Positions 384 to 26,751 of a stretch of DNA of 34,172 nucleotides are shown here, in pieces (the first letter of the stretch is position 1; each line of letters starts with the position of its first letter). The notes beneath the pieces are model-generated. The model did no database searches. It saw only the letters and a list, made by a program, of their open reading frames with translations, and was not told where the DNA came from. The translations under genes were made by a program, and so were the position numbers. The stretch comes from Porticoccaceae bacterium (lineage in GTDB: Bacteria; Pseudomonadota; Gammaproteobacteria; Pseudomonadales; Porticoccaceae), in contig JAQXEN010000031.1 of the NCBI GenBank assembly GCA_029250825.1, positions 1-34,172 of the forward strand. Reading direction: 5' to 3'.

Positions 384-495
384 GGTAACCCCCACCAGCC
401 ACACCTCGGCACACAGTATAACCACTACCGTTGCTCCCTTCCGGGCCTGGCGGGGTTCGCGGCTGGCTGTTGCGAGGGGACCAGTGAGGGCCACC
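384..495 (-). ncRNA. ffs: SRP RNA (4.5S, small bacterial type)
   Basis: The RNA component of the signal recognition particle, which binds Ffh to target nascent membrane proteins. On the reverse strand the centre reads CCAGGCCCGGAAGGGAGCAA, matching the conserved apical loop of 4.5S RNA (GGUCCGGAAGGAAGCAGCC in E. coli). The outer ends can pair (GGTGGCCCTCAC with GTGGGGGTTACC, allowing G-U pairs), giving a hairpin of about 112 nt, close to the 114 nt of E. coli. Exact ends are inferred from the pairing. Open reading frames crossing this stretch are shadows. Confidence 0.88.
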
Positions 496-13404: not shown

Positions 13405-14388
13405 TTACTCCAACGCATAACGCTCATTGCTCGGTGGTTTGCCATAGAGTTCGCTGTAACATCGACTAAAGTGCGGCGCCGTGGAAAAGCCACAACTAAT
13501 CGCTATATCAATTACTGGGATGGCGGTTTGCAACAGCATTAGTCGCGCTCTGGAGAGTCGCAATTCAAGGTAATATCGAGACGGTGCACAGTGCAAATAA
13601 CGATTAAATAAACGCTCTAATTGACGCCTGGAAATACCCACATAATTGGCCACTTCATCTAGGGTAAGGGGTTCTTCAATATTGCTTTCCATCAGTGTTA
13701 CTGCATCAACCAATCGGGGCTGACTGGCACCAATCAGATAGCGCAGTGGCGCACGCTGAGCATCTTTTTCAGTGCGCACCCGATCACAGGTAAACTGCTC
13801 CGAGATCTGCTGGACTAATTGATGGCCGTGAATACTGGCAATCAAGTTAAGCATTAGGTCAATAGAACTAATGCCTCCAGCGCAGGTGTAGCGGTCGCGA
13901 TCAATGGTAAACAGGCTCGATGACAGCTGCAGCTTGGGAAATTCCTCGCGCATGCTGGCAAGATTTTCCCAGTGAATAGTGCAGCGGTAGCCCTCTAATA
14001 ATCCGGCAATGGCAAGGGCATAGCTGCCGGTACAGATACCCCCGAGTGGAATATTATTTTTAGCAAAACCGCGCAGGCGACTAATCAGTAATTTATCGCA
14101 GTAGCGCTTGATGTTGTAGCCGCCACAGACCAGTAGCACCTTGATCTCAGTGGCATTTTCAAGACTGTCATTATGTTGTATTTCGAGTCCCGCGCTCGAC
14201 AGCACAGGTTCACCGGTCATGGTGAAAACTGACCAGCGATAGAGTTCCCTGCCACTGAGACGATTGGCCATACGCAGCATTCCCACTGCATTGGAAAAGG
14301 TACTCAGGGTATATTCCGGCATAAGCAGAAACCCTATATGCAGGGTTACTACCGGTTCAATAGAATCAACAGCAATATCATCGGACAT
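13405..14388 (-). CDS. Second GlxA-family transcriptional regulator (DJ-1/PfpI + AraC)
   Basis: 327-aa paralogue of the regulator at 12278-13315, with the same two domains: LHIGFLLMPEYTLSTFSNAVG and GGICTGSYALAIAGLL in the sensor part, then DEVANYVGISRRQLERLF and IDIAISCGFSTAPHFSRCYSELYG in the AraC part. The start is set at the ATG at 14388 because AAGG lies nine bases ahead; the frame is open from a TTG at 14406. It lies downstream of, and on the same strand as, the corrinoid/methyltransferase operon with a gap of about 146 bases. It converges on the first regulator. A GbdR-like role in betaine response is likely but not proven. Confidence 0.9.
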   Translation of the reverse strand: MSDDIAVDSIEPVVTLHIGFLLMPEYTLSTFSNAVGMLRMANRLSGRELYRWSVFTMTGEPVLSSAGLEIQHNDSLENATEIKVLLVCGGYNIKRYCDKLLISRLRGFAKNNIPLGGICTGSYALAIAGLLEGYRCTIHWENLASMREEFPKLQLSSSLFTIDRDRYTCAGGISSIDLMLNLIASIHGHQLVQQISEQFTCDRVRTEKDAQRAPLRYLIGASQPRLVDAVTLMESNIEEPLTLDEVANYVGISRRQLERLFNRYLHCAPSRYYLELRLSRARLMLLQTAIPVIDIAISCGFSTAPHFSRCYSELYGKPPSNERYALE

Positions 14389-14534
14389 TTTTAAACGCCT
14401 TCTCAATATGTACCACTCTTTTATTCTAAGAATCTAGCAATCAGAAACTAACGAACTGCTCGGTGGTTTATGCTGAGTATAGATCAACAAACTGACTTTT
14501 AAGAAGAAGTATTTAACCGTTTAGCAATCAAAAT

Positions 14535-16544
14535 TTAACCTCTGCGACGGCGTCTACCTGCACCGCTATCGGCGACTACTTTTAACGCCGGTCGAGTCAC
14601 CACAGAAAACAAATTGGGGAACGGATCAGTCTTGTTGGGAAAGGCCATGGCATCGACAAAATAGTCCTGAAACTTTGGCTCCAGAGCGGTTTCTATTTTC
14701 TCAATATTTTTTACCTGAGTTTCAATAAGCTCACGGGATTGTCGGTTCAGCAGCGCAATTCGCGCACCGGTGCCAGCGGCATTGCCCGCCGATGAAACAT
14801 CCTCCAGCAGACAGTCGGGAATCAAGCCCAACACCATTGCGTGCTGCACATTGATATGACTGCCAAAGGCACCGGCCAAACGAATTCGTTCAACCCGGTC
14901 TGTGTCCATATGGTCCATAAGTAATTTCACACCGGCATAAAGCGCGGCTTTGGCCAACTGGATTTGGCGGATATCATTTTGTGTCACCACAATCTGCGCC
15001 TGATCACTTTCAGAATCTACCACAGAGCCCAGCACATAGGACCAGGTGCGATCGTTTTGAATAATTCTCCCGGTGCGAGAGGCAAGGCTACCGTCAATAA
15101 TGCCATCGACTGTGACTATCCCCGCCAAGTACATCTCGGCAACCACTTCAATGATCCCTGAACCACAGATCCCGGTTACGCCGTGACTCTCAATGGCTTC
15201 AGCAAATCCCTGTTGATCGGACCAGAGTTCAGAACCAATCACTTTAAAGCGCGGTTCCAAGGTGGCAGGGTCTATGCGCACCCGCTCTATGGCGCCAGTG
15301 GCGGCGCGCTGACCACAGCTGATCTGGGCCCCTTCAAAGGCTGGACCTGTGGGGCTAGAGCAAGCCAGCAAGCGCTGACGATTGCCCAGTACAATCTCGG
15401 CATTGGTTCCCACATCCACCAACAGAGTCATCTGATCCTGTTCCTGAGGTTCCTCAGAGAGAATCATACCGGCGGTATCGGCGCCCACATGACCGGCAAT
15501 ACAGGGCAGTATATAGATGCGTCCGCCGCCGTTAATTTTCAGATCCAACTCAACCGCCGGTACTTCTACCGCGGCATCTGTGGTCAGGGCAAAGGGCGCG
15601 CCACCCAGTTCAACCGGGCTAATTCCCAGTAAAATATGATGCATAATCGGGTTGGCCACCAAGCTGACTTCGAGAATATCCTCTCGGCTAATACCCATTT
15701 CTGCGGCCACCTCTGCAAACAGACTATTGAGTGCCTCGCGGATCACCTGAGTCATCTCCCCGGCTCCCTCTGGGTGCATCATGACGTAGGAGACGCGGCT
15801 CATCAGATCTTCACCGAAGCGTATCTGTGGGTTCATTAGACTGGCGCTTGCCAGCACCGCCCCGCTGGCGAGATCACAGAGATGAGCGGCAATAGTGGTG
15901 GAACCCACATCTACGGCAACACCATAGGCCTTATCCCTTAAGCTCGGCCACAGGGCGATAATCTGTGTCTGTTGATAGACCGCCACAGTCATCCCGCGCT
16001 TGCCCTCGGCCAAGAGCGGTTGCAGGGTTGCTAATAGTCTAGTGTCACAGCCCAGATCAGTGAGACCCCAATCCGCTTCCAGAGCATCCTTAACCCGCTG
16101 CAAGTCACCTTTTGGCACATGCATATCGGCCTCTTCGACCTGCACGTAATAGAGCCTGGTAGCCGGATCCAAATGAATATCCCGGTACTCGGCATCTTTG
16201 CGCACGATCTGTCGGTGCACCTGACTTTCAGGTGGAACATCAATCACTACATCGTCTAGCAGCAAGCTGTGACAGCTCAGACGGCGGCCATTGGCCAGTG
16301 GTGCTTTGCGCTCACCGTATTTGATCTCGGTGGCACAGATTGGTGATAGATGGCTACTGTGAGACTCTATTTGATGTTTGCTAAAGCTGCCCTCGGCACA
16401 GACGATTTGGCAGCGACCACAGAGACCGCGGCCGCCGCACACCGAATCAATATCCACGCCCAGTACTCGCGCTGCATGGAGTAGCGGCGTATTAACCGGA
16501 AAGCTCCCGCGCCGACCAGAGGGAGTAAAGACAACTTTGACCAT
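14535..16544 (-). CDS. Corrinoid activation protein: 2Fe-2S ferredoxin + ASKHA ATPase domain (RACE/RamA-like role)
   Basis: 669-aa protein that should reduce cobalamin of the corrinoid protein from inactive Co(II) to Co(I), using ATP and a low-potential electron. The N-terminal domain is a plant-type 2Fe-2S ferredoxin with Cys36, Cys42, Cys45 (CGGRGLCGRC) and Cys91 (RRLSC). A linker follows, then the ASKHA domains (VAVDVGSTTIAAHL and LLVDVGTNAEIVLGN phosphate loops, GICGSGIIEVVAEMYLAG, IRLAGAFGSHI). This matches the DUF4445-type reductive activators of corrinoid enzymes. The last residues are an arginine/glycine tail (AGRRRRRG) resembling tails on two other proteins of this operon. The start is the ATG at 16544; a TTG at 16553 is the alternative. 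It is the last gene of the run. Confidence 0.9.
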   Translation of the reverse strand: MVKVVFTPSGRRGSFPVNTPLLHAARVLGVDIDSVCGGRGLCGRCQIVCAEGSFSKHQIESHSSHLSPICATEIKYGERKAPLANGRRLSCHSLLLDDVVIDVPPESQVHRQIVRKDAEYRDIHLDPATRLYYVQVEEADMHVPKGDLQRVKDALEADWGLTDLGCDTRLLATLQPLLAEGKRGMTVAVYQQTQIIALWPSLRDKAYGVAVDVGSTTIAAHLCDLASGAVLASASLMNPQIRFGEDLMSRVSYVMMHPEGAGEMTQVIREALNSLFAEVAAEMGISREDILEVSLVANPIMHHILLGISPVELGGAPFALTTDAAVEVPAVELDLKINGGGRIYILPCIAGHVGADTAGMILSEEPQEQDQMTLLVDVGTNAEIVLGNRQRLLACSSPTGPAFEGAQISCGQRAATGAIERVRIDPATLEPRFKVIGSELWSDQQGFAEAIESHGVTGICGSGIIEVVAEMYLAGIVTVDGIIDGSLASRTGRIIQNDRTWSYVLGSVVDSESDQAQIVVTQNDIRQIQLAKAALYAGVKLLMDHMDTDRVERIRLAGAFGSHINVQHAMVLGLIPDCLLEDVSSAGNAAGTGARIALLNRQSRELIETQVKNIEKIETALEPKFQDYFVDAMAFPNKTDPFPNLFSVVTRPALKVVADSGAGRRRRRG

Positions 16545-16560
16545 GTCCTGCAAAACTTAA

Positions 16561-17454
16561 CTAGGCTCTTCTTCGGCGACCGCCGCGAACGCGGCCTTCG
16601 CCTTCAGCTGGGGGTTCACGGTAAGCTTTAATCCAGTTGGCGCAGTTGGGATCATGACCCATCATGACATCGCCACCGCGCACCGCAGCCATCACTTCCG
16701 GATGCAGTGGACTGGTAATCGCCGAGGTCATACCCGCGCCCATTGCCATGGTTAGAAAGGCACTGTTAATACCATTGCGATTAGGCAGACCAAAACTGAC
16801 GTTGGAGGCGCCACAGGTAGTGTTCACCTTAAGTTCTTCACGGAGACGACGCACCACATGCATCACCTGCAACCCTGCGGTATTGATCGCGCCAATCGGC
16901 ATAACCAGAGGATCAACCACCACGTCGCTGTAGTGAATGCCGTAGTCAGCAGCCCGCTCGACAATCTTTTTCGCCACTTTAAAACGCTCATCTGGATCTT
17001 CAGAAATACCGGTTTCATCATTTGAAATGGCCACTACCGAGGCGCCGTATTTCGCCACCAAGGGCAGCACTCGCTCAAGCACCTCATCTTCGCCGGTAAC
17101 TGAATTAACCAGTGCTTTGCCCTGATAGACCGCGAGACCCGCTTCCAGAGCTTCGATAATCGATGAGTCAATACTCAGGGGCACATCGGTAATCGACTGC
17201 ACGAGCTGAATTGTCTCAGCCAGAATGCGCGGCTCATCCGCCAGTGGAATACCGGCGTTGACATCGAGCATTTGCGCCCCTGCAGCCACCTGTGCCAGAG
17301 CATCCGCTTCCACCCGGCTGTAATCCCCCTGCTTCATTTCTGCAGCGAGGATTTTGCGTCCCGTGGGATTGATACGCTCACCAATAATCACAAAGGGCTG
17401 ATCAAAGCCGATTTTGACTTCTCGGGTAGCGGAACTAATTGTCGTGATGGTCAT
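16561..17454 (-). CDS. Methylcorrinoid:tetrahydrofolate methyltransferase (pterin-binding domain, MtgA-like)
   Basis: 297-aa protein of the dihydropteroate-synthase/pterin-binding fold, the kind that moves methyl groups between methylcobamide and THF (MtgA, AcsE, MetH pterin domain). Visible marks: FVIIGERINPTGRKI near the N-terminus, QMLDVNAGIP, VPLSIDSS, LVNSVTGE, VVAISNDETG, VVDPLVMPIG, and TTCGASNVSFGLPNR. The domain fills the protein and is followed by a short tail rich in Gly and Arg (GRVRGGRRRRA). A GTG at 17466 is in frame, but its GGAG is better read as the ribosome site of the ATG at 17454. It follows the MetF-like gene by 15 bases. Next to a corrinoid protein, the likely job is methyl transfer to THF; AcsE-like transfer in reverse is chemically possible. 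Confidence 0.88.
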   Translation of the reverse strand: MTITTISSATREVKIGFDQPFVIIGERINPTGRKILAAEMKQGDYSRVEADALAQVAAGAQMLDVNAGIPLADEPRILAETIQLVQSITDVPLSIDSSIIEALEAGLAVYQGKALVNSVTGEDEVLERVLPLVAKYGASVVAISNDETGISEDPDERFKVAKKIVERAADYGIHYSDVVVDPLVMPIGAINTAGLQVMHVVRRLREELKVNTTCGASNVSFGLPNRNGINSAFLTMAMGAGMTSAITSPLHPEVMAAVRGGDVMMGHDPNCANWIKAYREPPAEGEGRVRGGRRRRA

Positions 17455-17469
17455 GGGTTTCTCCACAAA

Positions 17470-18456
17470 TTAACGGTTCGGATGCCAGGGAGTTCGATCT
17501 CCCAACACCTGGGTTTTTTCTACGATTTCAGCGATCCGATGTTCCTGACGGTAGGCCATAATATGGACGCCACTGGCACCGGGTATCTGGCGAATTTCAT
17601 TGATCATATCGATACAGATATTGACCCCTTCCTGCTTTTGATCCTCAGCTCCAGCAAGGCGCTTAATGATGGCATCGGGGATATGCACACCCGCCACATT
17701 ACTGCGAATCCACTCCGCGGATTTGGCTGAGGCCAGAGGGCCAACCCCGGGCAAGATAAAGACTTTTTCATGCAGCCCCAAATCTCGCACTCTGGCCATA
17801 TAGTCTTTGAGCATGGCGATATCAAAGCAGTACTGAGTCTGAATAAACTGAGCACCAGCGGCGACTTTTTTCGCCAGTCGCAGAGGTCGATAGTCAAAGG
17901 GTGGAGCAAAGGGATTTGCCGCGGCACCCAAAAACACTGGCGGCGGCGAGGTAATCTTTCGACCGCTGAGAAACTCACCCTTATCGCGCATGCCGCGGAG
18001 CATTTGCAAACTGGTCATGCAGTCCATATCAAACACCGGCTTGGCCTCTGGATGATCGCCGGACTGCACTCCATCACCGGTTAAACAGAGGATATTCGAC
18101 ACTCCCATTGCCGAGGCACCGAGTACATCGCCCTGCATTGCGATGCGGTTTTTATCGCGACAGGAGATCTGCATAATCATCGAGTAGCCGCGGCGAGTCA
18201 GCAGCGCACACATCCCGACACTAGACATATGACAGTTGGCACCGGAGCCGTCAGTGGCATTGATCGCATCCACATAGCCATCAAATAACGCAGCGCGCTG
18301 AAACACTTCCTGGGGGTCAGCAGAGTCTGGCGGTGCGATTTCTGCGGTCACGGCAAAATGGCCAGCGCGCAATACCCGCTCAAAGCGTCCGGGAGAATTG
18401 TGTCCCGGCAATATCGGCAAGTTCTCTCCCACGAGGGGTTCATCGTCAAAGGTCAT
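17470..18456 (-). CDS. Methylenetetrahydrofolate reductase-family protein (MetF-like)
   Basis: 328-aa TIM-barrel flavoprotein. It shows the MTHFR pattern: VTAEIAPPDSADP at the N-terminus, DAINATDGSGANCHMSS, MIMQISCRDKNRIAMQGD, NILCLTGDGVQSGDH, QFIQTQYCFD, and VFILPGVGPLASAKSAEW. The usual enzyme makes methyl-THF. Here the genes suggest the opposite direction, oxidation of methyl-THF from the demethylation to methylene-THF. It overlaps the MetV-like gene by four bases (ATGA), so the two are probably made together as a complex. The electron acceptor is not evident. Confidence 0.9.
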   Translation of the reverse strand: MTFDDEPLVGENLPILPGHNSPGRFERVLRAGHFAVTAEIAPPDSADPQEVFQRAALFDGYVDAINATDGSGANCHMSSVGMCALLTRRGYSMIMQISCRDKNRIAMQGDVLGASAMGVSNILCLTGDGVQSGDHPEAKPVFDMDCMTSLQMLRGMRDKGEFLSGRKITSPPPVFLGAAANPFAPPFDYRPLRLAKKVAAGAQFIQTQYCFDIAMLKDYMARVRDLGLHEKVFILPGVGPLASAKSAEWIRSNVAGVHIPDAIIKRLAGAEDQKQEGVNICIDMINEIRQIPGASGVHIMAYRQEHRIAEIVEKTQVLGDRTPWHPNR

Positions 18457-18923
18457 AACCGTCCCCCCAGTGGCAACCCGAGTCGCTTGCGCACAGCGCG
18501 CAGCCAGGCACTGGTGCCTTTAAGTCGCACATCCACTGGAGCCTGAATCACCTGAATCGTTGACTCTATGTCACCAATCCGCTTGCTGCCCTCCCAGGAG
18601 GTCACCCAGACGCAGACCATACTCGGATCGACCTCACAGTGGCCATTGCCGCGGACGCCGCCACAGGGGCCATTGCGGAGGGATTTGGGGCAGTTCATGG
18701 GACAGGCCATACCGGTTTCACCCAGAGTGCACTGGCCACAGGATTGGGAGTCAAATAAAAAGCCTTTAACCAACTTTTCGAGGGCCGCAAAACCGCCCTC
18801 TACACGCTGGTAGCCGAGCCGTTTAAAGATAGGATGCAGCAGCACCAGACCGCTCTCTAGGGTCTGGTAGACAGGACGCAACCAGCGGGCATTCTTAACC
18901 GACCAGTACCGAACCCTTTTCAA
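18453..18923 (-). CDS. MTHFR C-terminal-domain protein (MetV-like, cysteine-rich)
   Basis: 156-aa protein matching the MTHFR_C family (PF12225), the partner subunit called MetV in acetogens, where it binds metal or Fe-S centres. Seven cysteines stand in the central block: Cys62 and Cys65 (CGQC), Cys74, Cys78 (CPMNC), Cys87 (GPCGG), Cys96 and Cys104. This spacing suggests an Fe-S cluster or zinc site. It has four-base ATGA overlaps with the PF13769-type gene upstream and the MetF-like gene downstream, so translation is probably coupled. An unlinked methionine-pathway MetF would not need such a partner, so the pair looks dedicated to catabolism. Confidence 0.85.
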   Translation of the reverse strand: MKRVRYWSVKNARWLRPVYQTLESGLVLLHPIFKRLGYQRVEGGFAALEKLVKGFLFDSQSCGQCTLGETGMACPMNCPKSLRNGPCGGVRGNGHCEVDPSMVCVWVTSWEGSKRIGDIESTIQVIQAPVDVRLKGTSAWLRAVRKRLGLPLGGRL

Positions 18924-19228
18924 GCGCTCTCTACCCTGAGGCCTTTGGCCGCGACCAGCGCAGCAATATCGGCATTGGAATAGCGGGCCTCGATGGCTTC
19001 GACAAACTGCTGCGCCATTTCCTGGGGCGTGCCATCAGCTTCGATTGAGCTGGTAACTCGACGCCAATCCGCGAGATATTCGTCACTGCCGCCCTTGCCT
19101 GCGCGCATAGCAGCACGATCGATAGCTGCCTGAAAGCGATGACTAAGCATCGCCTTGCCTTTGACTCGGCCACTTTTTACCAGAATCTGAGCGGGAATAT
19201 CACGCCAAAATACTTCAATTTTTTGCAT
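18920..19228 (-). CDS. Small 'virulence factor' family protein (PF13769-like), function unknown
   Basis: 102-aa soluble protein with no cysteines and no signal peptide. The opening (QKIEVFWRDIPAQILVKSGR) and the block LSHRFQAAIDRAAMRAGKGGSDEYLADWRR agree with the short family named Virulence_fact. The name is historical and says nothing about a role here. It sits inside the corrinoid operon, 21 bases after the DUF1638 gene and overlapping the MetV-like gene by four bases. It is therefore probably an accessory factor for the methyltransferase or reductase, perhaps for assembly or cofactor loading. That role is inferred only from position. Confidence 0.8.
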   Translation of the reverse strand: MQKIEVFWRDIPAQILVKSGRVKGKAMLSHRFQAAIDRAAMRAGKGGSDEYLADWRRVTSSIEADGTPQEMAQQFVEAIEARYSNADIAALVAAKGLRVESA

Positions 19229-19249
19229 CAGATGGCTCTCTTATACCGT

Positions 19250-19891
19250 CTATTTAATCTTCAAAATTTGCTCTTCAAGACCCCTGTTTAAGTCCCCATA
19301 ACCAACCTGTTCATGGCGAAACTGTAGACCTAAAAATTCTGCCGCGGTTGCGGCTCTGGCCACTAGATCCGGATCTTGCCGCTGGGACAGGTAGACCACT
19401 AATTTGTAGTGGGCAAAATACTGATCTCGCAGCTGCGGATATTTATCCAGTTTTAACCCCTTAATCACTAAGCGGTCGAAATGTTCCACCAGAAAGTCAG
19501 TCAGATAAAAAGTCCCCAGCTCCTGATCTGCAATCTGCGTAAAACGCGGTTCCCCGGCATAGAAGGAGTAACAATGGGCGCCGGGCAATCGCTCTATGGA
19601 CTCCCCCGCCTCGGCTAACACTCTATCGATTTCACCGCCGGTACCGCAGTCGCCATAGGCAACAAAAATATGCTCGTAGTGGTCGCGATTCTGACCAATT
19701 TTTTCCCGCAGTTTCTGGGGGATTAATTTGGGTCGGTTGTGTAACTCTGCATCGAGACACTGCAGATCAATCTGACTCCAAGCATTGTGCTTTTGCAGCC
19801 AGACAATCTCCCGGGCCAGTGCACCGCAGGCAATAACTAGCAACTTGGCCTTAGTGCCGGAGCTGTCTAATGGCCCGAGGCCCTTCATCAA
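19250..19891 (-). CDS. DUF1638 family protein, function unknown
   Basis: 213-aa soluble protein recognised as DUF1638 (PF07796) by LLVIACGALAREI near the N-terminus, LDAELHNRPKLIPQKLREKI, VAYGDCGTGGEID and GAHCYSFYAG. Conserved-looking Cys22, Cys45, His51, Cys82, His106 and Cys107 could hold a metal or bind a cofactor. The start overlaps the corrinoid-protein stop by four bases (ATGA). DUF1638 genes are known companions of MttB-family methyltransferases, so a role in loading or protecting the corrinoid is plausible, but nothing in the sequence proves it. Confidence 0.82.
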   Translation of the reverse strand: MMKGLGPLDSSGTKAKLLVIACGALAREIVWLQKHNAWSQIDLQCLDAELHNRPKLIPQKLREKIGQNRDHYEHIFVAYGDCGTGGEIDRVLAEAGESIERLPGAHCYSFYAGEPRFTQIADQELGTFYLTDFLVEHFDRLVIKGLKLDKYPQLRDQYFAHYKLVVYLSQRQDPDLVARAATAAEFLGLQFRHEQVGYGDLNRGLEEQILKIK

Positions 19892-20586
19892 GCCGCCTCT
19901 ACAGCCCTGCGCTCCTGCACCAGTCGAATCGCTGTAGTCGCTGCATCTGCAGCATCGCGACAGTAGGCATCGGCTCCCACCGCAGTGCCAAACTCTTCAT
20001 TGAGCGGTGCGCCGCCAACCATAACGATATATTTATCCCGCAATCCCTGATCTTTAAGGGCATCGATCACCACTTTCATATAGGGCATGGTGGTGGTCAA
20101 CAGAGCGGACATCCCCAAGATATCCGGCTTGTGGCGCTCTAGAGCGGCAATATATTCTTCGACACTGTTGTTAATACCCATATCGTGAACTTCGAAACCT
20201 GCACCTTCCATCATCATGGCAACCAGATTTTTACCGATATCATGAATGTCGCCTTTAACCGTGCCAATCACCATAGTGCCCACTGGCTTAGCGCCAGTTT
20301 CAGCTAACAGAGGCTTGAGAATAGACATGCCACCCTTCATGGCATTGGCTGCCAACAGCACCTCGGGAACAAATAAAATGCCGTCTCGAAAATCAATCCC
20401 GACAACGGTCATACCGTCCACCAGCGCTTCCCCCAAGACACGCTCTGGAGTCCAGTCGCGATCCAAGAGAATCTGTGTGCCCTCTTCAATCTCTTCTTTT
20501 AAACCATCATAGAGATCGTCATGCATCTGCAAAACCAAATCAGCATCGGATAATTCGGCGAGTACAATATCGTCTTCTTCAGACAT
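19888..20586 (-). CDS. Corrinoid (B12-binding) methyl-carrier protein, MtgC/MttC-like
   Basis: 232-aa methyl carrier. Residues about 20-95 form the helical cap domain (VLGEALVDGMTVVGIDFRDG, LFVPEVLLAANAMKGGMSIL). Residues about 100-225 form the Rossmann-like B12 domain with the base-off motif GDIHDIGKN; His115 should be the lower cobalt ligand. GMSALLTTTMPYMKVVIDAL and VMVGGAPLN are further family marks. It would accept the methyl group from the MttB-like protein and pass it to the pterin methyltransferase. It lies 25 bases after the MttB-like gene, with GAGG ahead of its ATG. An unusually acidic N-terminus (MSEEDDIVLAELSDAD) is visible. Confidence 0.93.
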   Translation of the reverse strand: MSEEDDIVLAELSDADLVLQMHDDLYDGLKEEIEEGTQILLDRDWTPERVLGEALVDGMTVVGIDFRDGILFVPEVLLAANAMKGGMSILKPLLAETGAKPVGTMVIGTVKGDIHDIGKNLVAMMMEGAGFEVHDMGINNSVEEYIAALERHKPDILGMSALLTTTMPYMKVVIDALKDQGLRDKYIVMVGGAPLNEEFGTAVGADAYCRDAADAATTAIRLVQERRAVEAA

Positions 20587-20611
20587 AGGGTTTAATCCTC
20601 AACGGTCCTGC

Positions 20612-22165
20612 TTAATAGTCACGGTCGGCAAAGGAACCTTTGCGTCGCGCCATAAAATCAATCAACGCTTCATCAACCGCCGGATCAAATGTCGGTGCCT
20701 GATACTCGTTGAGCATTTTCTTCCACAGCAGATTGGCGCGCTGGGCAGTATCCAGCGAGCCATCTACCTGCCACTGCTCATAGCTATTATTGTCGGCAAT
20801 ATTGGAGCGGTAGAATGCAGTTTCAAAGTTCTTTAGGGTGTGTGCTGAACCCAAATAATGTTTACCGGGACCCACTTCACGGACTGCATCCAGTGCCTGA
20901 CCGTTCTCCGACATATCCATGCCGCCGAGCAGCACCGAAATCATGCTGGCCTGATCGCTGTCCATAATAAATTTCTCATAGCCCATAGCCAGACCACCTT
21001 CTAACCAACCGGCGGTATGCAACATAAAGTTAACCCCGGCTAGGGCGCTGGTTTGCAATGTATTGGCTGCTTCATAGGCGGCCTGAGCGTCGGGCAATTT
21101 AGAGCCGGTGAGTCCACCACCACTTCTAAAGGGCACACCGAGTCGGCGCGCCAGAGACGCCGCGGCGTAGATAACCTGACTTGGCTCTGGGGTACCAAAG
21201 GTGGGTGCGCCAGTGGCCATTGATACTGCCGCGGCAAAGGTGCCAAAGATAACCGGTGCCCCAGGGCGACAGAGCTGAGTAAAGGCAATACCGGCCAGTG
21301 CTTCGGCGAGTATCTGCGTCACTGTGCCGGCGGTGGTCACCGGTGACATGGCGCCGGCGAGAATAAAGGGCGAGACTACTGTGGCCTGATTATTGCGCGC
21401 ATAGACCTTGAGTGAACCGAGCATGGTGGCATCGTAGGTCATGGGTGAATTGACATTAATCAGACTGGTAAGCACACAGTTTTGATCGACAAATTCATCA
21501 CCAAACACTAGCTTGGCCATATCCACCGTATCCTGAGCACGCTCATGGTGGGTTACGGATCCCATCAGTGGCTTGTCACTGTATTTAAAATGGCTGTAAA
21601 CCATATCGAAGTGGCGCTTGTTTACCGGCAGATCCACTGGCTCACAAATAGTGCCCCCGGAATGATGTATTCCCGGTGCCAGGTACGCTAGCTTCACAAA
21701 ATTTTGAAAATCTTCGATAGTGGCGTAGCGGCGGCCTCTGTCTATATCCTGAACAAAGGGTGAACCATAGGCGGGCACTAACACTGTGCGCTTGCCACCG
21801 ATAATGACATTGCGCTCTGGATTGCGCGCGTGCTGGACAAATTCACGGGGTGCCGTGGCCTGAATAATCGAGCGACAAAGCCCCTTGGGAAAGTGCACTC
21901 GAGTACCCTGCACATCGGCACCGGCTTCACTCCACATGGCCAGCGCTTCAGGATCATCGAGAAAATCAATACCGATCTCTTCAAGCAAGATATCCGCATT
22001 GTTTTCGATCAGCTGCAGATCTTCTTCGCTGAGATATTCGAAATAGGGAATTTTGCGCTCGATAAACGGCGCCGCTTTAACCACTGCAGTGGCTCGAGCT
22101 TGGCGTCGACCATCGCGACCGCCACCCTCTCTACCCGCTCTTCTACGCCCAGTTGTTTCAGTCAT
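20612..22165 (-). CDS. MttB-family methyltransferase without pyrrolysine (probable glycine betaine:corrinoid methyltransferase, MtgB-like)
   Basis: 517-aa TIM-barrel methyltransferase of the trimethylamine methyltransferase family. Recognisable blocks are LLEEIGIDFLDDPEAL, PAYGSPFVQDIDRGRRYAT, PGIHHSGGTICEP, KPLMGSVTHHERA, VNVNSP-type region at 236-241, PGAPVIFGTFAAAVSMATGAPTFG split over 301-324, and LHTAGWLEGGL. There is no in-frame TAG; the place of pyrrolysine in true trimethylamine enzymes falls by rough alignment in the Gly-rich stretch near 348-356. Non-Pyl members demethylate quaternary amines such as glycine betaine. The linked dimethylglycine and sarcosine enzymes favour that substrate over proline betaine or carnitine. 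The N-terminus carries a positively charged Arg/Gly stretch (residues 7-24). GGAAG precedes the ATG. Confidence 0.9.
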   Translation of the reverse strand: MTETTGRRRAGREGGGRDGRRQARATAVVKAAPFIERKIPYFEYLSEEDLQLIENNADILLEEIGIDFLDDPEALAMWSEAGADVQGTRVHFPKGLCRSIIQATAPREFVQHARNPERNVIIGGKRTVLVPAYGSPFVQDIDRGRRYATIEDFQNFVKLAYLAPGIHHSGGTICEPVDLPVNKRHFDMVYSHFKYSDKPLMGSVTHHERAQDTVDMAKLVFGDEFVDQNCVLTSLINVNSPMTYDATMLGSLKVYARNNQATVVSPFILAGAMSPVTTAGTVTQILAEALAGIAFTQLCRPGAPVIFGTFAAAVSMATGAPTFGTPEPSQVIYAAASLARRLGVPFRSGGGLTGSKLPDAQAAYEAANTLQTSALAGVNFMLHTAGWLEGGLAMGYEKFIMDSDQASMISVLLGGMDMSENGQALDAVREVGPGKHYLGSAHTLKNFETAFYRSNIADNNSYEQWQVDGSLDTAQRANLLWKKMLNEYQAPTFDPAVDEALIDFMARRKGSFADRDY

Positions 22166-22167
22166 AA

Positions 22168-22260
22168 TTACGCTTCCGTTGGAGAGATTGTTCTCTCTTC
22201 TATTGGATCTTTATGGGCCGCATTCTGTGCCTCTTTAACCACTGCCGCATCTGCTTTCAC
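22168..22260 (-). CDS. Possible small ORF (30 codons) just before the MttB-like gene
   Basis: The gap between the dehydrogenase and the MttB-like gene holds a GTG-started frame ending in TAA two bases before the next ATG. Its product (VKADAAVVKEAQNAAHKDP, then IEERTISPTEA) has a protein-like, helix-prone, charged composition. A weak AGG lies seven bases ahead of the GTG. It could be a leader peptide for translational coupling, a decayed N-terminal extension of the methyltransferase, or chance. I do not recognise it. Confidence 0.25.
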   Translation of the reverse strand: MKADAAVVKEAQNAAHKDPIEERTISPTEA

Positions 22261-22295
22261 GACGCCTAGGTGTCAGTTTGCGACGCGCCTAAAAA

Positions 22296-24809
22296 CTAAC
22301 TTCTCAAACAGTTATTTTCGCTATCAAAGGGTGACTCTTCTATGACCGTTGCCCGGTAGCGATCACCGAGAATTTCAATCTCTAATTCTGTGCCTATGGC
22401 ACCGTAGGCGGTTTTCACCAGACCCAGAGCCAAAGATTTATTGGTTCTAAAGCCAAAGCCTCCAGAGGTGGCGCGACCGACCAGCTGACCCTCTTTATAG
22501 AGACCCTCTGAACCGCGGGCATCGGCATCGGTAACGCCGTGCACTTCAAGGGTGGCAAAACAATTTTCAAAGCCTCGCTGCTGCCAAGCTGCAAGCGCTT
22601 CTTTGCCGACAAAATCGCAGTCTTTATCGAGTTTTACAAAGCGTTCTAATCCGGACTCTAGGGCGGAGTATTCGATGGACATCTCACGGGGAATCAAACG
22701 GTAAGATTTCTCAATCCGCATACTCTCCATAGCACGAATACCAAAGGGTTTAACATTGAACTCGGCACCGGCTTTCATCAGCTCATCAAAGATATAATTT
22801 TGCATCTCGATTGGGTGGTGTAGTTCCCAACCCAACTCGCCGACAAAGTTAACCCGCAGTGCTTCGGCCTGGGCATAACCCAGATTGATCGACTTGCCGG
22901 TAAGCCATTTAAAACTATCGTTGGACATATCCGTGTCAGTGAGTTTTTGCAGTAGCGCTCGAGACTTGGGGCCAGCGACCACTAAAACGCCCATCTGAGT
23001 CGTGATTTTCTGCAGACTAACGGAACCATCCCGCGGTGCCAACTTGGTCAGATAGTCCCAGTCATGGCGCTCTTGAGAACCGGCAAATACTAGGTAATAG
23101 CTATTTCGTGCGCGCTTATAAACCGTAAACTCGGCGCGCACGCCCCCGTTTTTAGAAAGCATATGACAGAGACCAATGCGCCCTACTGCCTTGGGAATAG
23201 TATTCGCCAAAATGCTATTTAGCCAAGCTTCTGCACCATGTCCGGTGACTGTGCACTTGGAGAATGCCGACATATCGAGAACCCCAACATGCTCATTCAC
23301 ATGGCGACATTCCTCTCCAACAAAGTCAAAGTAGTTGGAGCGGCGGAAAGAATTTTTCTCAACAATACGACCATCGGCCAAGGCCTTGGAATGGTTTTTA
23401 TTCCACAGGGTATCGGCTTTATCCAAATCATCCTCCGACAGAGAATAACCGGGAGGCGCAAACCAGTTGGGGCGCTCCCATCCATAGACGGAGCCAAACA
23501 CGGCGCCCAATGCTTTCATACGGTCGTAACAGGGAGTGGTTTTTAAAGGCCGAGCGGCACCGCGCTCTTCGTCTGGATAGTGGTTTTTAAACACATGATC
23601 ATAGGCCTCTTCATTTTTACTGCGCAGATAACCGCGGGTTGCATAGGGACCAAAGCGCCGCGGGTCAACACCCATCATATCCACAGTGGGCTCACCATCG
23701 ACAATCCATTCCGCCAACTGCCAACCGGCACCGCCGGCGGCAGTAATACCAAAGCTGTGGCCTTCATTAAGCCAGAAGTTCTTTAGTCCCCAGGCTGGCC
23801 CCACAATTGGGTTGCCATCTGGCGTATAAGCAATGGCACCATTATACACCGTCTTGACTCCCACCTCAGCAAAGGCCGGAACCCGGTTCATGCAGGCCTC
23901 AATATGGGGCATCAGACGATCGAGATCACCATTAAACAGTTCGTATTCAGAGTGCTCGCTGGGGCCGTCCACATAGCAACAGGGAGCATCCTCTTCATAG
24001 GGGCCGAGAATAAAACCACCCGCCTCTTCGCGCAGATAATAACCGGCGTCAGACTCTCGTAAAACCGCCTGCTCGGGAAGTCCCTGAGCTTTTCGCGCCA
24101 GTACGTCTGGGTGTGGGTCAGTGACAATATACTGGTGTTCCACCGGAATAACCGGGATATCCAGACCCACCATCTCGCCGGTCTTGCGAGCAAAATTACC
24201 GGTGCAGCAGACCACATGCTGACAGTGGATATCACCTTTATCAGTCTTGACGATCCAACTGTCATCCGGCTGTTGCTCGAGATCCAAGACCACAGTGTTG
24301 CGATAGATTTCAGCTCCCCGAGAGCGGGCACCTTTGGCCAGTGCCTGAGTCAGATCAGCGGGTTGAATATAGCCGTCATCCGGGTGCTGAATGGCGCCGA
24401 TAATGCCATCCACGTTAGCCATTGGCCAGGCTTCTTTAACCTGCTCTGGGGTTAAAAAATTAACCTCGACACCCACTGTCTGAGCAACCCCTGAGTAGTA
24501 TTTGTACTCGTCCATACGGTCTTGGTTGGCCGCTAAACGAATATTCGAGACCACACTAAAGCCGACATTTTGCTCGGTCTCTTTTTCAAGCTCGTGATAA
24601 AAGTCCACTGAGTACTGGTGTAACTTGCCCACCGAGTAGCTCATATTAAACAGTGGCAATAACCCGGCAGCATGCCAAGTGGACCCAGACGTCAATTCCT
24701 TGCGCTCGACCAACACCACATCAGTCCAGCCTTTTTTAGCCAGATGATAAAGCGTGCTGACACCGACAACGCCACCGCCCACTACCACTACTTTTGCACT
24801 TTTTTTCAT
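22296..24809 (-). CDS. FAD-dependent oxidoreductase / GcvT fusion, dimethylglycine dehydrogenase-like
   Basis: 837-aa enzyme of the DMGDH/SARDH type. It oxidises an N-methyl group and hands the one-carbon unit to THF. The FAD domain (about 1-370) has VVVVGGGVVGVSTLYHLAKKG. SGSTWHAAG follows, in which His46 fits the histidine that covalently binds FAD in mammalian dimethylglycine dehydrogenase. A middle FAO_M-type region follows (about 370-430), then the GcvT domain (VGVLDMSAFSKCTVTG, FVGELGWELHHP, GIRAMESMRIEKSYR) and its C-terminal barrel (SGGFGFRTNKSLALGLV). Since SoxBDAG in the same window handles sarcosine, dimethylglycine is the most likely substrate. It is the first gene of the minus-strand run, 130 bases before the MttB-like gene. 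AGAGAC lies before its ATG. Confidence 0.9.
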   Translation of the reverse strand: MKKSAKVVVVGGGVVGVSTLYHLAKKGWTDVVLVERKELTSGSTWHAAGLLPLFNMSYSVGKLHQYSVDFYHELEKETEQNVGFSVVSNIRLAANQDRMDEYKYYSGVAQTVGVEVNFLTPEQVKEAWPMANVDGIIGAIQHPDDGYIQPADLTQALAKGARSRGAEIYRNTVVLDLEQQPDDSWIVKTDKGDIHCQHVVCCTGNFARKTGEMVGLDIPVIPVEHQYIVTDPHPDVLARKAQGLPEQAVLRESDAGYYLREEAGGFILGPYEEDAPCCYVDGPSEHSEYELFNGDLDRLMPHIEACMNRVPAFAEVGVKTVYNGAIAYTPDGNPIVGPAWGLKNFWLNEGHSFGITAAGGAGWQLAEWIVDGEPTVDMMGVDPRRFGPYATRGYLRSKNEEAYDHVFKNHYPDEERGAARPLKTTPCYDRMKALGAVFGSVYGWERPNWFAPPGYSLSEDDLDKADTLWNKNHSKALADGRIVEKNSFRRSNYFDFVGEECRHVNEHVGVLDMSAFSKCTVTGHGAEAWLNSILANTIPKAVGRIGLCHMLSKNGGVRAEFTVYKRARNSYYLVFAGSQERHDWDYLTKLAPRDGSVSLQKITTQMGVLVVAGPKSRALLQKLTDTDMSNDSFKWLTGKSINLGYAQAEALRVNFVGELGWELHHPIEMQNYIFDELMKAGAEFNVKPFGIRAMESMRIEKSYRLIPREMSIEYSALESGLERFVKLDKDCDFVGKEALAAWQQRGFENCFATLEVHGVTDADARGSEGLYKEGQLVGRATSGGFGFRTNKSLALGLVKTAYGAIGTELEIEILGDRYRATVIEESPFDSENNCLRS

Positions 24810-25083: not shown

Positions 25084-26751
25084 ATGAGTGATATCAAAAT
25101 AGCGCGCAGTGCCACCAGCCAACCGATCGCTGAAATCGCTGCCAAGCTCAATATTCCCGATGCCGCAATAATTCCCTACGGCCGAACCAAAGCGAAAATA
25201 TGCCCTGACCATATTGCGTCTTTAAAAGACAAGCCCGATGGCAAGCTGATATTGGTTACCGCGATTACCCCGACCCCTGCGGGAGAAGGTAAAACGACGA
25301 CTTCTGTAGGCCTGACCGATGGACTTAACCGCATCGGCAAAAACGCACTGGTGTGCCTGCGAGAACCCAGCCTCGGCCCCTGCTTTGGTATGAAAGGCGG
25401 AGCTGCCGGTGGCGGTTATGCTCAGGTGGTGCCAATGGAAGATATCAATCTGCACTTCACCGGTGACTTTCACGCCATTGGCGCAGCTCACAATTTGCTC
25501 TCAGCCCTAATCGACAACCATATCCACTGGGGCAACAGTCTCGAAATTGATGCCCGTCGTATTGTCTGGAAGCGCGTTGCGGATATGAATGACCGTGCGC
25601 TGCGCAGTATCAACTGCGGTTTGGGTGGCCCAGGCAATGGCTTCCCGCGGCAGGATGGCTACGATATTACGGTAGCATCGGAAGTGATGGCGATCTTCTG
25701 TCTAGCCACAGATCTCGATGATCTAAAAGCGCGACTGAATAAAATTGTGGTGGGCTACACTCGCGACCACAAACCGGTTCATGCCAGTGAAATACTCGGC
25801 ACCGGCGCCATGACCGTGCTGCTTAAAGATGCTCTTGCACCCAACCTAGTGCAGACCCTGGAGAACAATCCAGCGATTATCCACGGCGGACCCTTCGCCA
25901 ATATCGCCCACGGCTGCAACTCAGTAATCGCCACCAAGGCAGGCCTTAAGATGGCAGATTATGTAGTCACCGAAGCCGGCTTTGGTGCTGATCTCGGGGC
26001 CGAGAAATTCTTTGATATTAAATGCCGCGCAGCAGGCCTCAGTCCCGATGCCGCCGTAATTGTAGCCACTACCCGAGCGTTAAAAATGCACGGTGGGGTA
26101 AGCAAGGAAGATCTGGATAAAGAAGATCTCAAGGCTCTTGAGAATGGCTGCTGCAATCTAGTGCGCCATATTGAAAATGTAAAAGCCTTTGGCGTTCCAG
26201 TGGTGGTGGGTATCAACCGCTTTACATCAGATACAGATGCTGAAATTGCGCTGATTAAAAAGATCGCTCTGGCCAATGGCGTTAAAGCTATCGACTGTAC
26301 CCACTGGGCTGATGGTGGTGCTGGCACTGAGGAGCTAGCCCATGAAGTCGTGGCGCTTGTGGATTCCGGTCATGCTAATTTCGCCCCCTTATACCCAGAT
26401 GATATGCCTATTTGGGAAAAGATAAAAACCGTAGCCACGCGCCTCTATCGGGCTGATGATATTATCGCCGATCAGAAGATTCGCGATCAGGTTCAGCAGT
26501 TACAAGACAATGGTTATGGCCATTTCCCGGTGTGCATTGCGAAAACGCAGTACAGCTTTTCAACCGACCCAACCCTCAAGGGCGCGCCCTCTGATCATGT
26601 GGTGGCAATTCGCGAGGTGAGACTGTCTGCGGGTGCCGGTTTTATTGTGGTGGTCTGTGGCGACATTATGACTATGCCGGGGCTACCGCGAGTGCCTGCG
26701 GCGAACAGCATTGATATGAATGATCAGGGTGAGGTTGTTGGTTTATTTTAG
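25084..26751 (+). CDS. fhs: Formate-tetrahydrofolate ligase (10-formyl-THF synthetase)
   Basis: 555-aa enzyme that interconverts formate + ATP + THF and 10-formyl-THF. Marks: the ATP-binding loop [16 protein letters not shown] starting at residue 63, [56 protein letters not shown], and the C-terminal [16 protein letters not shown]. The length is normal. A strong AAAGGAG site lies ten bases before the ATG. It is divergent from the dehydrogenase/MttB run across a 274-base gap. In a methyl-oxidising pathway it would run towards formate and gain ATP; in biosynthesis it would run the other way. FolD, needed to link it with methylene-THF, is not in the window. Confidence 0.97.

What the first reader, a model, noticed from the sequence alone, without database searches (positions are those of the whole stretch)
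14535..24809. Corrinoid-dependent quaternary-amine demethylation operon in an apparently aerobic gammaproteobacterium
Seen: a non-Pyl MttB-family methyltransferase, base-off corrinoid protein, pterin methyltransferase, MetF/MetV pair and a ferredoxin-ASKHA activator in one run, led by a dimethylglycine-dehydrogenase-like enzyme. Known: MtgB/MtgC/MtgA systems are best described in anaerobes, while aerobes usually open glycine betaine with a Rieske monooxygenase (GbcAB) or BHMT. Inference: this operon replaces GbcAB or BHMT and conserves the first methyl group on THF. It must work although cob(I)alamin is oxygen-sensitive.
Basis: partly seen in the sequence, partly recalled or inferred. Interest (0 to 1): 0.85.

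Follow-up and report, generated by a model that had tools for sequence, protein, structure and literature searches.

The report
B12-dependent betaine demethylation operon, arginine-tagged
A marine SAR92-type bacterium carries a vitamin-B12 operon that very probably strips the first methyl group off the osmolyte glycine betaine, a route already shown in other aerobic marine bacteria, and its separate enzymes share an apparently undescribed arginine-rich tail that may hold them to the B12 protein.

Summary
Nine minus-strand genes run from 24809 to 14535: dimethylglycine dehydrogenase, non-pyrrolysine MtgB, MtgC, DUF1638, PF13769, MetV, MetF, pterin methyltransferase (MtgD) and a RACo/RamA-like activator, beside GbdR, SoxBDAG and formate-THF ligase. 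In this SAR92-clade MAG (91% complete) I found cytochrome oxidase and full-length MetH, but no GbcA-type oxygenase, separate BHMT/MtgE or corrin-ring marker CbiC.

This is a new member of that kind.

One feature appeared in no paper that I found. Unrelated proteins that must meet MtgC carry arginine-rich tails (MtgB at the N-terminus; MtgD, the activator and, elsewhere, MtgE at the C-terminus). In 44 of 45 loci with MtgB, MtgC, MtgD and activator all three clients are tagged; the exception has a broken activator frame. Activators of 11 MttB-less genomes, a distant subfamily, have none. MtgC has a conserved acidic N-terminus (first 35 residues, mean net charge -13.5). I propose electrostatic docking of clients on the B12 hub; binding is untested.

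The parts
22296..24809 (-). dimethylglycine dehydrogenase (mitochondrial type), first gene of the run
   Evidence: DAO + FAO_M + GCV_T; dimethylglycine dehydrogenase chains about 624 bits, dimethylglycine oxidase 321 bits
20612..22165 (-). MtgB: non-pyrrolysine MttB-family betaine:corrinoid methyltransferase
   Evidence: PF06253 750 bits; 4yyc 762 bits, MtgB chains 9yce/2qne about 425 bits; only MttB found in the genome
22073..22165 (-). arginine-rich N-terminal tail of MtgB
   Evidence: tail in 114 of 114 scored MttB-family frames with R at least 4 and R+K at least 6 in the first 40 residues, 113 of 114 with R at least 5
19888..20586 (-). MtgC: corrinoid-binding hub protein
   Evidence: B12-binding and cap domains; MtgC model NF047996 196 bits, below its cut-off of 370
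20482..20586 (-). acidic N-terminal part of MtgC (first 35 residues, of which about 13-14 are extra compared with NF047996 and 1y80)
   Evidence: net charge -13 here, mean -13.5, sd 1.0 in 67 homologues; L9, L12, L17 invariant in 37 sequences; alignment offsets
19250..19891 (-). DUF1638 protein, predicted to be a four-cysteine metalloprotein that helps corrinoid reactivation
   Evidence: PF07796 102 bits; AlphaFold2 pLDDT 90; C22, C45, C82, C107 in 95-100% of 57 sequences
18920..19228 (-). PF13769 protein (named 'virulence factor' in Pfam), unknown role, conserved in the operon
   Evidence: present in the synteny; AlphaFold2 pLDDT 93.5, best PDB fold match E 0.27
18453..18923 (-). MetV-like zinc/Fe-S partner of MetF
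   Evidence: PF12225 87 bits; seven cysteines invariant in 40 sequences
17470..18456 (-). MetF: methylene-THF reductase, here expected to oxidise methyl-THF
   Evidence: PF02219 122 bits
16561..17466 (-). MtgD: methylcobalamin:THF methyltransferase (pterin-binding)
   Evidence: PF00809 108 bits; NF005719 369 bits, above its cut-off of 259
16564..16602 (-). arginine-rich C-terminal tail of MtgD
   Evidence: 65 of 68 distinct MtgD ends pass the count rule; the three others have five arginines
14535..16553 (-). RACo/RamA-like corrinoid activator with [2Fe-2S] domain
   Evidence: RACo_C_ter 309 bits; 3zyy 297 bits
14538..14573 (-). arginine-rich C-terminal tail of the activator
   Evidence: 84 of 89 distinct activator ends pass the count rule, 0 of 11 in MttB-less genomes
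13405..14406 (-). GbdR-like betaine regulator
   Evidence: NF052371 434 bits, cut-off 480
12278..13315 (+). second, more distant GbdR-like regulator
   Evidence: NF052371 176 bits
6887..12099 (-). SoxB-SoxD-SoxA-SoxG heterotetrameric sarcosine oxidase
   Evidence: TIGR01373 724, TIGR01374 124, TIGR01372 1466 bits, all over cut-off; TIGR01375 97 bits, below cut-off 144
25084..26751 (+). formate-tetrahydrofolate ligase, divergent from the operon
   Evidence: NF010030 914 bits, cut-off 652

Best explanation
The operon is an MtgBCD-type, cobalamin-dependent glycine betaine demethylation system of an aerobic SAR92-clade bacterium. MtgB moves one methyl group from glycine betaine to cob(I)alamin on MtgC (inferred for this protein; measured for anaerobic homologues). 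MtgD passes it to THF (inferred; in Ruegeria mtgC and mtgD are needed for growth on betaine). MetVF oxidises methyl-THF to methylene-THF (inferred). DMGDH and SoxBDAG remove the other two methyl groups and also load THF (inferred from family). Formate-THF ligase can recover ATP as formate leaves (inferred). When oxygen turns the cofactor to cob(II)alamin, the RACo-like activator, helped by DUF1638, reduces it again (both are genetically tied to a split methionine synthase in Phaeobacter; reactivation is those authors' inference and mine). The genome lacks a corrin-ring synthesis marker, so it probably depends on imported B12. Separately, I infer that the arginine-rich tails on MtgB, MtgD and the activator are a shared docking tag for the acidic N-terminus of MtgC, keeping clients at the hub as covalent linkage does in MetH. 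The tails and the acidic N-terminus are shown in sequence; the docking is not.
For: Family and structure matches of the genes. Conserved order in related loci. Betaine regulators and downstream steps in the window. No GbcA-type oxygenase; the only PF02574 protein is MetH; CbiC in 0 of 19 genomes of the genus and a cobalamin riboswitch in the own genome; BCCT transporters; haem-copper oxidase. Predicted betaine-contact residues kept at 4 of 5 places. Published knockouts of the same system in R. pomeroyi and fitness data for the DUF4445 and DUF1638 proteins in P. inhibens. For the tag: 44 of 45 loci with all three clients tagged; 0 of 11 activators tagged in MttB-less genomes against 39 of 42 in the other activator genomes, the three misses ending in RRRRR plus one or two residues; 11 MttB paralogues at 25-37% identity also tagged; arginine preferred over lysine also in low-GC loci; acidic MtgC N-terminus.
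Against: No activity has been measured for this protein. MttB-family members use several quaternary amines, and the window's MtgC scores below NCBIfam's MtgC cut-off. The genome is a 91%-complete MAG in 93 contigs, so GbcA, BHMT or MtgE could be missed; four of 18 genus mates do have an MtgE besides a MetH-sized protein. For the tag: residue order is not shared between MtgB and the other tails beyond composition (mean z about 0), so a sequence-specific signal is unlikely; the untagged control activators are also a distant subfamily (24-29% identity), so ancestry is not separated from function; PF13769 and MetV also have basic N-termini (mean +5.5 and +5.4); any polyanion could be the target.
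Confidence: 0.85

Rival explanations
1. The MttB-family enzyme acts mainly on another quaternary amine (proline betaine, carnitine, choline, gamma-butyrobetaine), and glycine betaine is a secondary or no substrate.
For: The family has members for several such substrates (passages of PMC12478193; abstracts); the F353 position of D. hafniense MtgB is a glycine here.
Against: It is the only MttB found in the genome, sits with DMGDH, SoxBDAG and GbdR-type regulators, and its four predicted betaine contacts are kept.
Confidence: 0.1
2. As in Ruegeria pomeroyi, MtgC and MtgD also serve methionine synthesis, so the operon is a dual-purpose enzyme.
For: MtgC/MtgD do both jobs in R. pomeroyi. Four of 18 genus mates (G003, G006, G007, G015) carry a separate MtgE homologue (45-49% to S. 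meliloti MtgE), with an arginine-containing end, so the dual role may exist in the genus; the own genome is only 91% complete.
Against: No separate MtgE was found in the own genome; its only PF02574 protein is a full-length MetH. The four mates with MtgE also have a second PF02574 match in a frame of 1,227-1,229 residues, the length of MetH.
Confidence: 0.08
3. The arginine-rich tails do not bind MtgC but a polyanion (polyphosphate, RNA, the membrane), gathering the enzymes in a condensate or at a surface.
For: Composition, not order, is what the tails share; arginine/glycine-rich stretches suit such binding (recalled, no call).
Against: The tails follow the corrinoid system and not the activator fold: 0 of 11 activators of MttB-less genomes have one; the tails sit on MtgC's clients and MtgC itself has an extreme acidic N-terminus.
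Confidence: 0.3
4. The tails are neutral low-complexity ends without function.
For: They vary in length and order; linkers diverge.
Against: Kept on three or four unrelated proteins through Alpha-, Beta- and Gammaproteobacteria, and arginine is kept in low-GC loci; the other families of the same loci have such C-terminal ends in 6 of 554 cases.
Confidence: 0.08

Closest known systems
MtgBCD(E) of Ruegeria pomeroyi DSS-3 and other aerobic marine bacteria (PMC12478193; abstract and sections Results, Discussion and Bioinformatics read)
   Same: PF06253 MtgB, PF02310 MtgC, PF00809 MtgD, RamA-like activator, DUF1638, a MetF; aerobic host; betaine steps nearby; Gammaproteobacteria included in the survey.
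   Different: SAR92 is not mentioned in the main text. Here the genes form one operon with DMGDH in front and MetVF inside; no MtgE was found and a full-length MetH is present (the paper gives 28 of 239 metH genomes with MtgBCD). The paper's main text holds none of the words arginine, tail, motif, disordered, docking or electrostatic.
MtgB/MtgC/MtgA of Desulfitobacterium hafniense (passages; start of the abstract of PMC7154762)
   Same: Non-Pyl MttB member that demethylates glycine betaine to a corrinoid protein; methyl group ends on THF.
   Different: Anaerobe. The MtgB chain in PDB 9yce begins at the catalytic domain, without room for the basic tail, if the chain is full length. Its MtgA is described as lacking sequence identity with known structures, whereas the window's enzyme is an ordinary PF00809 protein with solved relatives.
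Split methionine synthase with RamA-like and DUF1638 proteins of Phaeobacter inhibens (PMC5764234; passages)
   Same: Same activator family and DUF1638, genetically tied to a separate corrinoid protein in an aerobe.
   Different: Makes methionine and needs a homocysteine module, which was not found as a separate gene in the window's genome.
Sinorhizobium meliloti pSymB cluster (L096)
   Same: MtgB, MtgC, DUF1638, PF13769, MetV, MetF, MtgD and activator in one region, with arginine-rich ends on MtgB, MtgD, activator and MtgE.
   Different: Divergent MtgB, and a Bmt/MtgE gene in the region; its MtgD end has five arginines and misses the count rule by one.
MtaB-MtaC methanol system (passage of PMC9842639)
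   Same: There an extra N-terminal domain of the corrinoid protein fits between methyltransferase subunits and appears to stabilise the complex: a precedent for an N-terminal docking part on MtgC.
   Different: A different methyltransferase; no arginine-rich tails in the passages seen.

Membership tests
Aerobic MtgBCD glycine betaine demethylase | PF06253 + PF02310 + PF00809 proteins encoded together | tested here: met
Aerobic MtgBCD glycine betaine demethylase | RACo/RamA-like activator and DUF1638 | tested here: met
   both in the same run
Aerobic MtgBCD glycine betaine demethylase | betaine catabolic genes nearby, no GbcA or BHMT | tested here: met
   (91%-complete genome)
Aerobic MtgBCD glycine betaine demethylase | mutant cannot grow on glycine betaine | not testable with these tools
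   shown for R. pomeroyi mtgC and mtgD
Dual MtgBCDE methionine synthase | separate homocysteine module MtgE | tested here: not met
   only PF02574 protein of the own genome is MetH; four of 18 genus mates do have MtgE
Pyrrolysine MttB (trimethylamine methyltransferase) | in-frame amber codon and score above TIGR02369 cut-off | tested here: not met
   open frame of 517 residues; 262 bits against a cut-off of 525
D. hafniense-type MtgB | glycine betaine contact residues Y94, N199, R309, H345 (docking-based) | tested here: met
   Y133, N237, R347, H383; numbering mapped by me; F353 is G391
D. hafniense-type MtgC (NCBIfam NF047996) | score above curated cut-off | tested here: not met
   196 bits against 370
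Glycine betaine monooxygenase GbcAB | Ring_hydroxyl_A oxygenase | tested here: not met
   0 matches in the own genome
RACo/RamA-like activator | RACo linker, middle and ASKHA domains with [2Fe-2S] domain | tested here: met
   3zyy 297 bits
Dimethylglycine dehydrogenase | FAD oxidoreductase + THF-binding GCV_T domains, closest to DMGDH | tested here: met
   activity not tested

The most novel reading that the evidence does not exclude
Aerobic split corrinoid methyltransferases use a common electrostatic tag. Unrelated client enzymes (MtgB at its N-terminus; MtgD, the RACo-like activator and MtgE at their C-termini; also MttB paralogues of 25-37% identity) have gained arginine-rich tails that dock on a conserved acidic N-terminus of the B12 protein MtgC. 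The tag replaces the covalent linkage of MetH and shortens the exposure of cob(I)alamin to oxygen.
Probability: 0.45. Interest if true: 0.75.

Novelty: new member of a known kind. Interest (0 to 1): 0.55.

Why it matters
The operon extends a recently found B12-dependent glycine betaine route to the SAR92 clade, marine bacteria that appear to lack corrin-ring synthesis, so betaine turnover there would depend on B12 supplied by others. The shared tails, if they are a docking tag, would show how a corrinoid enzyme built from separate subunits can work in air, would give a sequence mark for finding further clients of MtgC (new methyl donors or acceptors), and would be a simple part for building such pathways. 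The few anaerobic comparators seen in the PDB leave little room for such tails, so the idea can be tested directly by swapping or removing them.

Tried and rejected
Sequence-specific tag: rejected as far as tested. Shuffling the last 20 residues of a tail (60 shuffles per locus) shows that order is not shared between MtgB and MtgD, activator or MtgE tails (mean z 0.01, 0.06, -0.16); MtgD, activator and MtgE tails share a little (mean z 1.2-1.8). A regular expression for an RR..GGR..ARR motif matched 17 of 114 MtgB, 2 of 64 MtgD, 0 of 66 activator and 0 of 11 MtgE tails.

Function of DUF1638 and PF13769 by fold: AlphaFold2 models are good, but Foldseek gave only weak matches for DUF1638 (best E 4e-4, TM by query length about 0.22-0.34, carbamoyltransferase- and binding-protein-like) and none for PF13769 (best E 0.27). 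No function is claimed from the folds. The profile search of DUF1638 against PDB sequences gave no hit with E below 0.4, and the MetV search none up to E 0.01.

Strict anaerobes as controls: the genome collection could not be centred outside the own phylum in the way I tried, and a plasmid search with D. hafniense MtgB showed only proteobacterial records in the 60 rows and ten genera printed (three of its hits read, all three tagged). The anaerobe comparison therefore rests on PDB chains, which may be trimmed constructs. The control of 11 MttB-less genomes of the same phylum was used instead; two of them, G177 and G105, are only 74% and 88% complete.

Literature on the tails: searches 'arginine-rich + corrinoid + methyltransferase' (2 papers, off topic), 'split methionine synthase / cobalamin / tail' (2,640 papers with two terms, 15 listed, none fitting), a six-term search (768 papers with three terms, 15 listed, none fitting) and 'MtgC + arginine + corrinoid' (0 papers) found nothing. 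The library holds only open-licence papers.

Rows dropped before counts: loci L099-L128 (30 MtgB stretches) were left out of the tallies; they overlap L129-L148 only in part, and all 30 print a basic MtgB N-terminus. One MtgB frame that runs off its contig, L030, had no start and was set aside. Ends that fail the rule: MtgD of L096, L097 and L155 (five arginines each); activators of L195 and L198 (RRRRR) and L146 (weak), plus two broken or partial frames (L017, L022); MtgE of L075. The four extra MtgE of genus mates came after the tally: one of four passes the rule, the other three end in RARRR plus two to four residues. Counts are of related sequences, not independent events. My scripts label MtgD 'MtgA'.
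Full report
WHAT IS THERE. The window is contig C62 of an assembly of 2.33 Mb in 93 contigs, 91% complete. Its closest relatives in named genomes are Porticoccaceae/SAR92-clade bacteria, including the strains H921, MOLA455 and HTCC2207 (91-95% identity in MtgB). The run on the minus strand is DMGDH, MtgB, MtgC, DUF1638, PF13769, MetV, MetF, MtgD, RACo-like activator. It is followed by a GbdR-like regulator, a second GbdR-like gene on the other strand and SoxBDAG, and preceded by a divergent formate-THF ligase. Order and content recur in the SAR92 loci fetched, with MetVF replaced in some; in Halieaceae, Woeseiaceae and others the core MtgB-MtgC-DUF1638-PF13769-(MetVF)-MtgD-activator is often kept while DMGDH and Sox genes move or are out of the stretch.

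HOW IT PROBABLY WORKS. Glycine betaine gives its first methyl group to cob(I)alamin on MtgC through MtgB, MtgD moves it to THF, MetVF oxidises it, and DMGDH and sarcosine oxidase remove the other two methyl groups, also on THF. This is inference from families, context and published homologues, not activity of these proteins. Support: the four betaine-contact residues proposed for D. hafniense MtgB by docking (passages of PMC6855144) are kept, one further position is not. The genome shows no Ring_hydroxyl_A protein; its one PF02574 protein is a full-length MetH, with matches to the homocysteine, pterin and B12 proteins in one 1,222-residue ORF. So neither GbcA nor a separate BHMT/MtgE was found. 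It has COX1, four BCCT matches, one of them a fragment, a BetA-like protein below the BetA cut-off (635 against 732 bits), a cobalamin riboswitch and no CbiC; none of 19 genomes of the genus has CbiC. Four of the 18 genus mates do have a separate MtgE homologue (45-49% identity to the S. meliloti one), which speaks for a possible dual role there.

WHAT IS KNOWN. PMC12478193 (PNAS, September 2025; abstract, Results, Discussion and Bioinformatics sections read) shows by proteomics and knockouts that MtgC and MtgD are needed for glycine betaine growth and methionine synthesis in R. pomeroyi. It reports MtgBCD in Alpha-, Delta- and Gammaproteobacteria, predicts that RamA and DUF1638 recharge cobalamin, and reports 28 of 239 metH genomes that also have MtgBCD. 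SAR92 does not occur in its main text. PMC5764234 (passages) had tied the DUF4445 and DUF1638 proteins to methionine synthesis in P. inhibens, without a specific proposal for DUF1638. The search for SAR92 with glycine betaine listed 7 papers. In one, PMC6383258, I looked for three terms: the main text refers glycine betaine assimilation to its supplement, which I could not read. In PMC10746254, on SAR92 isolates and DMSP, the words betaine, methyltransferase and cobalamin do not occur. The operon is therefore a new member of a known kind. It differs from R. pomeroyi in having no MtgE that I could find, with MetH instead, and one compact operon with MetVF.

THE TAILS. MtgB begins with, and MtgD and the activator end with, arginine-rich stretches. 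In S. meliloti the MtgE/Bmt protein has one as well, and in Granulosicoccus-type loci too. Counts: with a strict rule (last 22 residues, R at least 5 and R+K at least 7), MtgD 48 of 57, activator 50 of 54, MtgE 7 of 11, other families of the same loci 1 of 482, remaining frames 17 of 928. With R+K at least 6 and distinct ends, MtgD 65 of 68, activator 84 of 89, MtgE 10 of 11, the other families together 6 of 554; the failing ends are listed. MtgB N-termini: 114 of 114 with R at least 4 and R+K at least 6 in 40 residues, among them 11 paralogues at 25-37% identity; 113 of 114 with R at least 5. In 45 loci with MtgB, MtgC, MtgD and activator, all three clients are tagged in 44 (rule there: R at least 5 in the last 22 residues for MtgD and activator, R+K at least 6 in the first 40 for MtgB); in the other, L017, the activator and MtgC frames are broken. 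The four MtgE of SAR92 genus mates also end in an arginine cluster (RARRR or RSRRRR with a lysine before it), though only one passes the count rule.

CONTROLS. Of 398 genomes sampled from the phylum, 42 have MttB and 53 an activator C-terminal domain (the same handles). Twelve of the 53 have no MttB match. Eleven of these activators are distant (24-29% identity) and 0 of 11 are tagged; the twelfth genome, G131, has a close activator and MtgD, both tagged. Of the 42 close activators (41 MttB genomes and G131), 39 pass the rule and three end in RRRRR plus one or two residues. Because the 11 are also the distant subfamily, this control cannot separate aerobic life or MttB partnership from ancestry. 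PDB chains of D. hafniense MtgB (9yce), of a PF00809 methyltransferase (4o0q, from D. hafniense as I recall) and of RACo (3zyy, from Carboxydothermus as I recall) leave little room for such tails, but constructs may be trimmed. In the four tails from loci below 42% GC, arginine makes 86% of R+K in the tail against 40% in the body; in the twelve from loci of 42-48% GC it is 78% against 61%.

THE HUB. The first 35 residues of MtgC have net charge -13.5 on average (sd 1.0, n = 67), far from every other end measured; the next lowest is the SoxD N-terminus, -4.7. About 13-14 residues of this part are extra compared with the NCBIfam MtgC model (alignment 16 to model position 3) and with the nearest solved corrinoid protein 1y80 (23 to chain position 9), and it has invariant hydrophobic places. 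Corrinoid proteins beside the untagged activators score between -5 and +4, with uncertain starts. Opposite charges on all clients and on the hub suggest docking. The test on residue order shows that this would be electrostatic rather than a sequence signal. A precedent for an N-terminal docking part on a corrinoid protein is MtaC (passage of PMC9842639). No paper found in the searches describes such tails.

THE TWO UNKNOWN GENES. DUF1638 is predicted with confidence (pLDDT 90) as an alpha/beta protein. Four cysteines (C22, C45, C82, C107) are kept in 95-100% of 57 sequences, with H51 and D89 in all. In the model's secondary structure each cysteine lies at the end of, or a few residues after, one of the first four strands (whose numbering is one lower), so a shared metal or Fe-S site is plausible; I had no coordinates to measure it. 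PF13769 (pLDDT 93.5) has no PDB match and many invariant residues.

VERDICT. Observation confirmed. Interpretation supported, but the pathway was published in 2025. The undescribed part is the shared tail and acidic hub, which I put at 45% as MtgC docking.

Noticed in passing
L014:13304-14242, L018:13164-14165, L021:13236-14198, L043:9049-9894: In several SAR92 and Woeseiaceae loci MetVF is replaced, at the same place in the operon, by another ORF; the two that were scanned (L018, L043) are very divergent MTHFR-family proteins (28 and 43 Pfam bits). In some loci (L024, L033) no ORF of over 100 residues was found between PF13769 and MtgD.
   Followed up: partly
window 19250-19891: DUF1638 has four almost invariant cysteines and an invariant His and Asp, which suggests a metal or Fe-S site; no specific function was proposed in the papers seen beyond a link to cobalamin recharging.
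   Followed up: partly
window 18920-19228: The PF13769 protein, named 'virulence factor' in Pfam, is a conserved member of this corrinoid operon; its predicted fold has no match in the PDB.
   Followed up: partly
L203, L204, L205, L206 (G003, G006, G007, G015): Four of 18 genus mates carry a separate MtgE homologue besides a MetH-sized protein, with an arginine cluster at the end.
   Followed up: partly
L179 (G131:C17): A genome without an MttB match keeps a tagged MtgD, a MetF and a tagged close activator; its methyl donor is unknown and may be an unrecognised client of the same hub.
   Followed up: partly
L023:3008-4564, L026:3076-4632, L043:15703-17244, L065:1591-3201: A distant MttB paralogue (25-28% identity to MtgB) recurs near DMGDH-like genes of about 31-39% identity, with the same basic N-terminus; possibly for another betaine.
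   Followed up: no
genus of the window: MttB is found in 12 of 19 genomes of the genus (one only as a fragment), and corrin synthesis (CbiC) in 0 of 19.
   Followed up: no
L017: The activator and MtgC genes of this locus are each split in two frames; described only, not mended.
   Followed up: no
window 390-486 (minus strand): Bacterial small SRP RNA, 70.9 bits, overlaps the ORF listed at 379-699 on the plus strand, which may therefore not be a gene.
   Followed up: no
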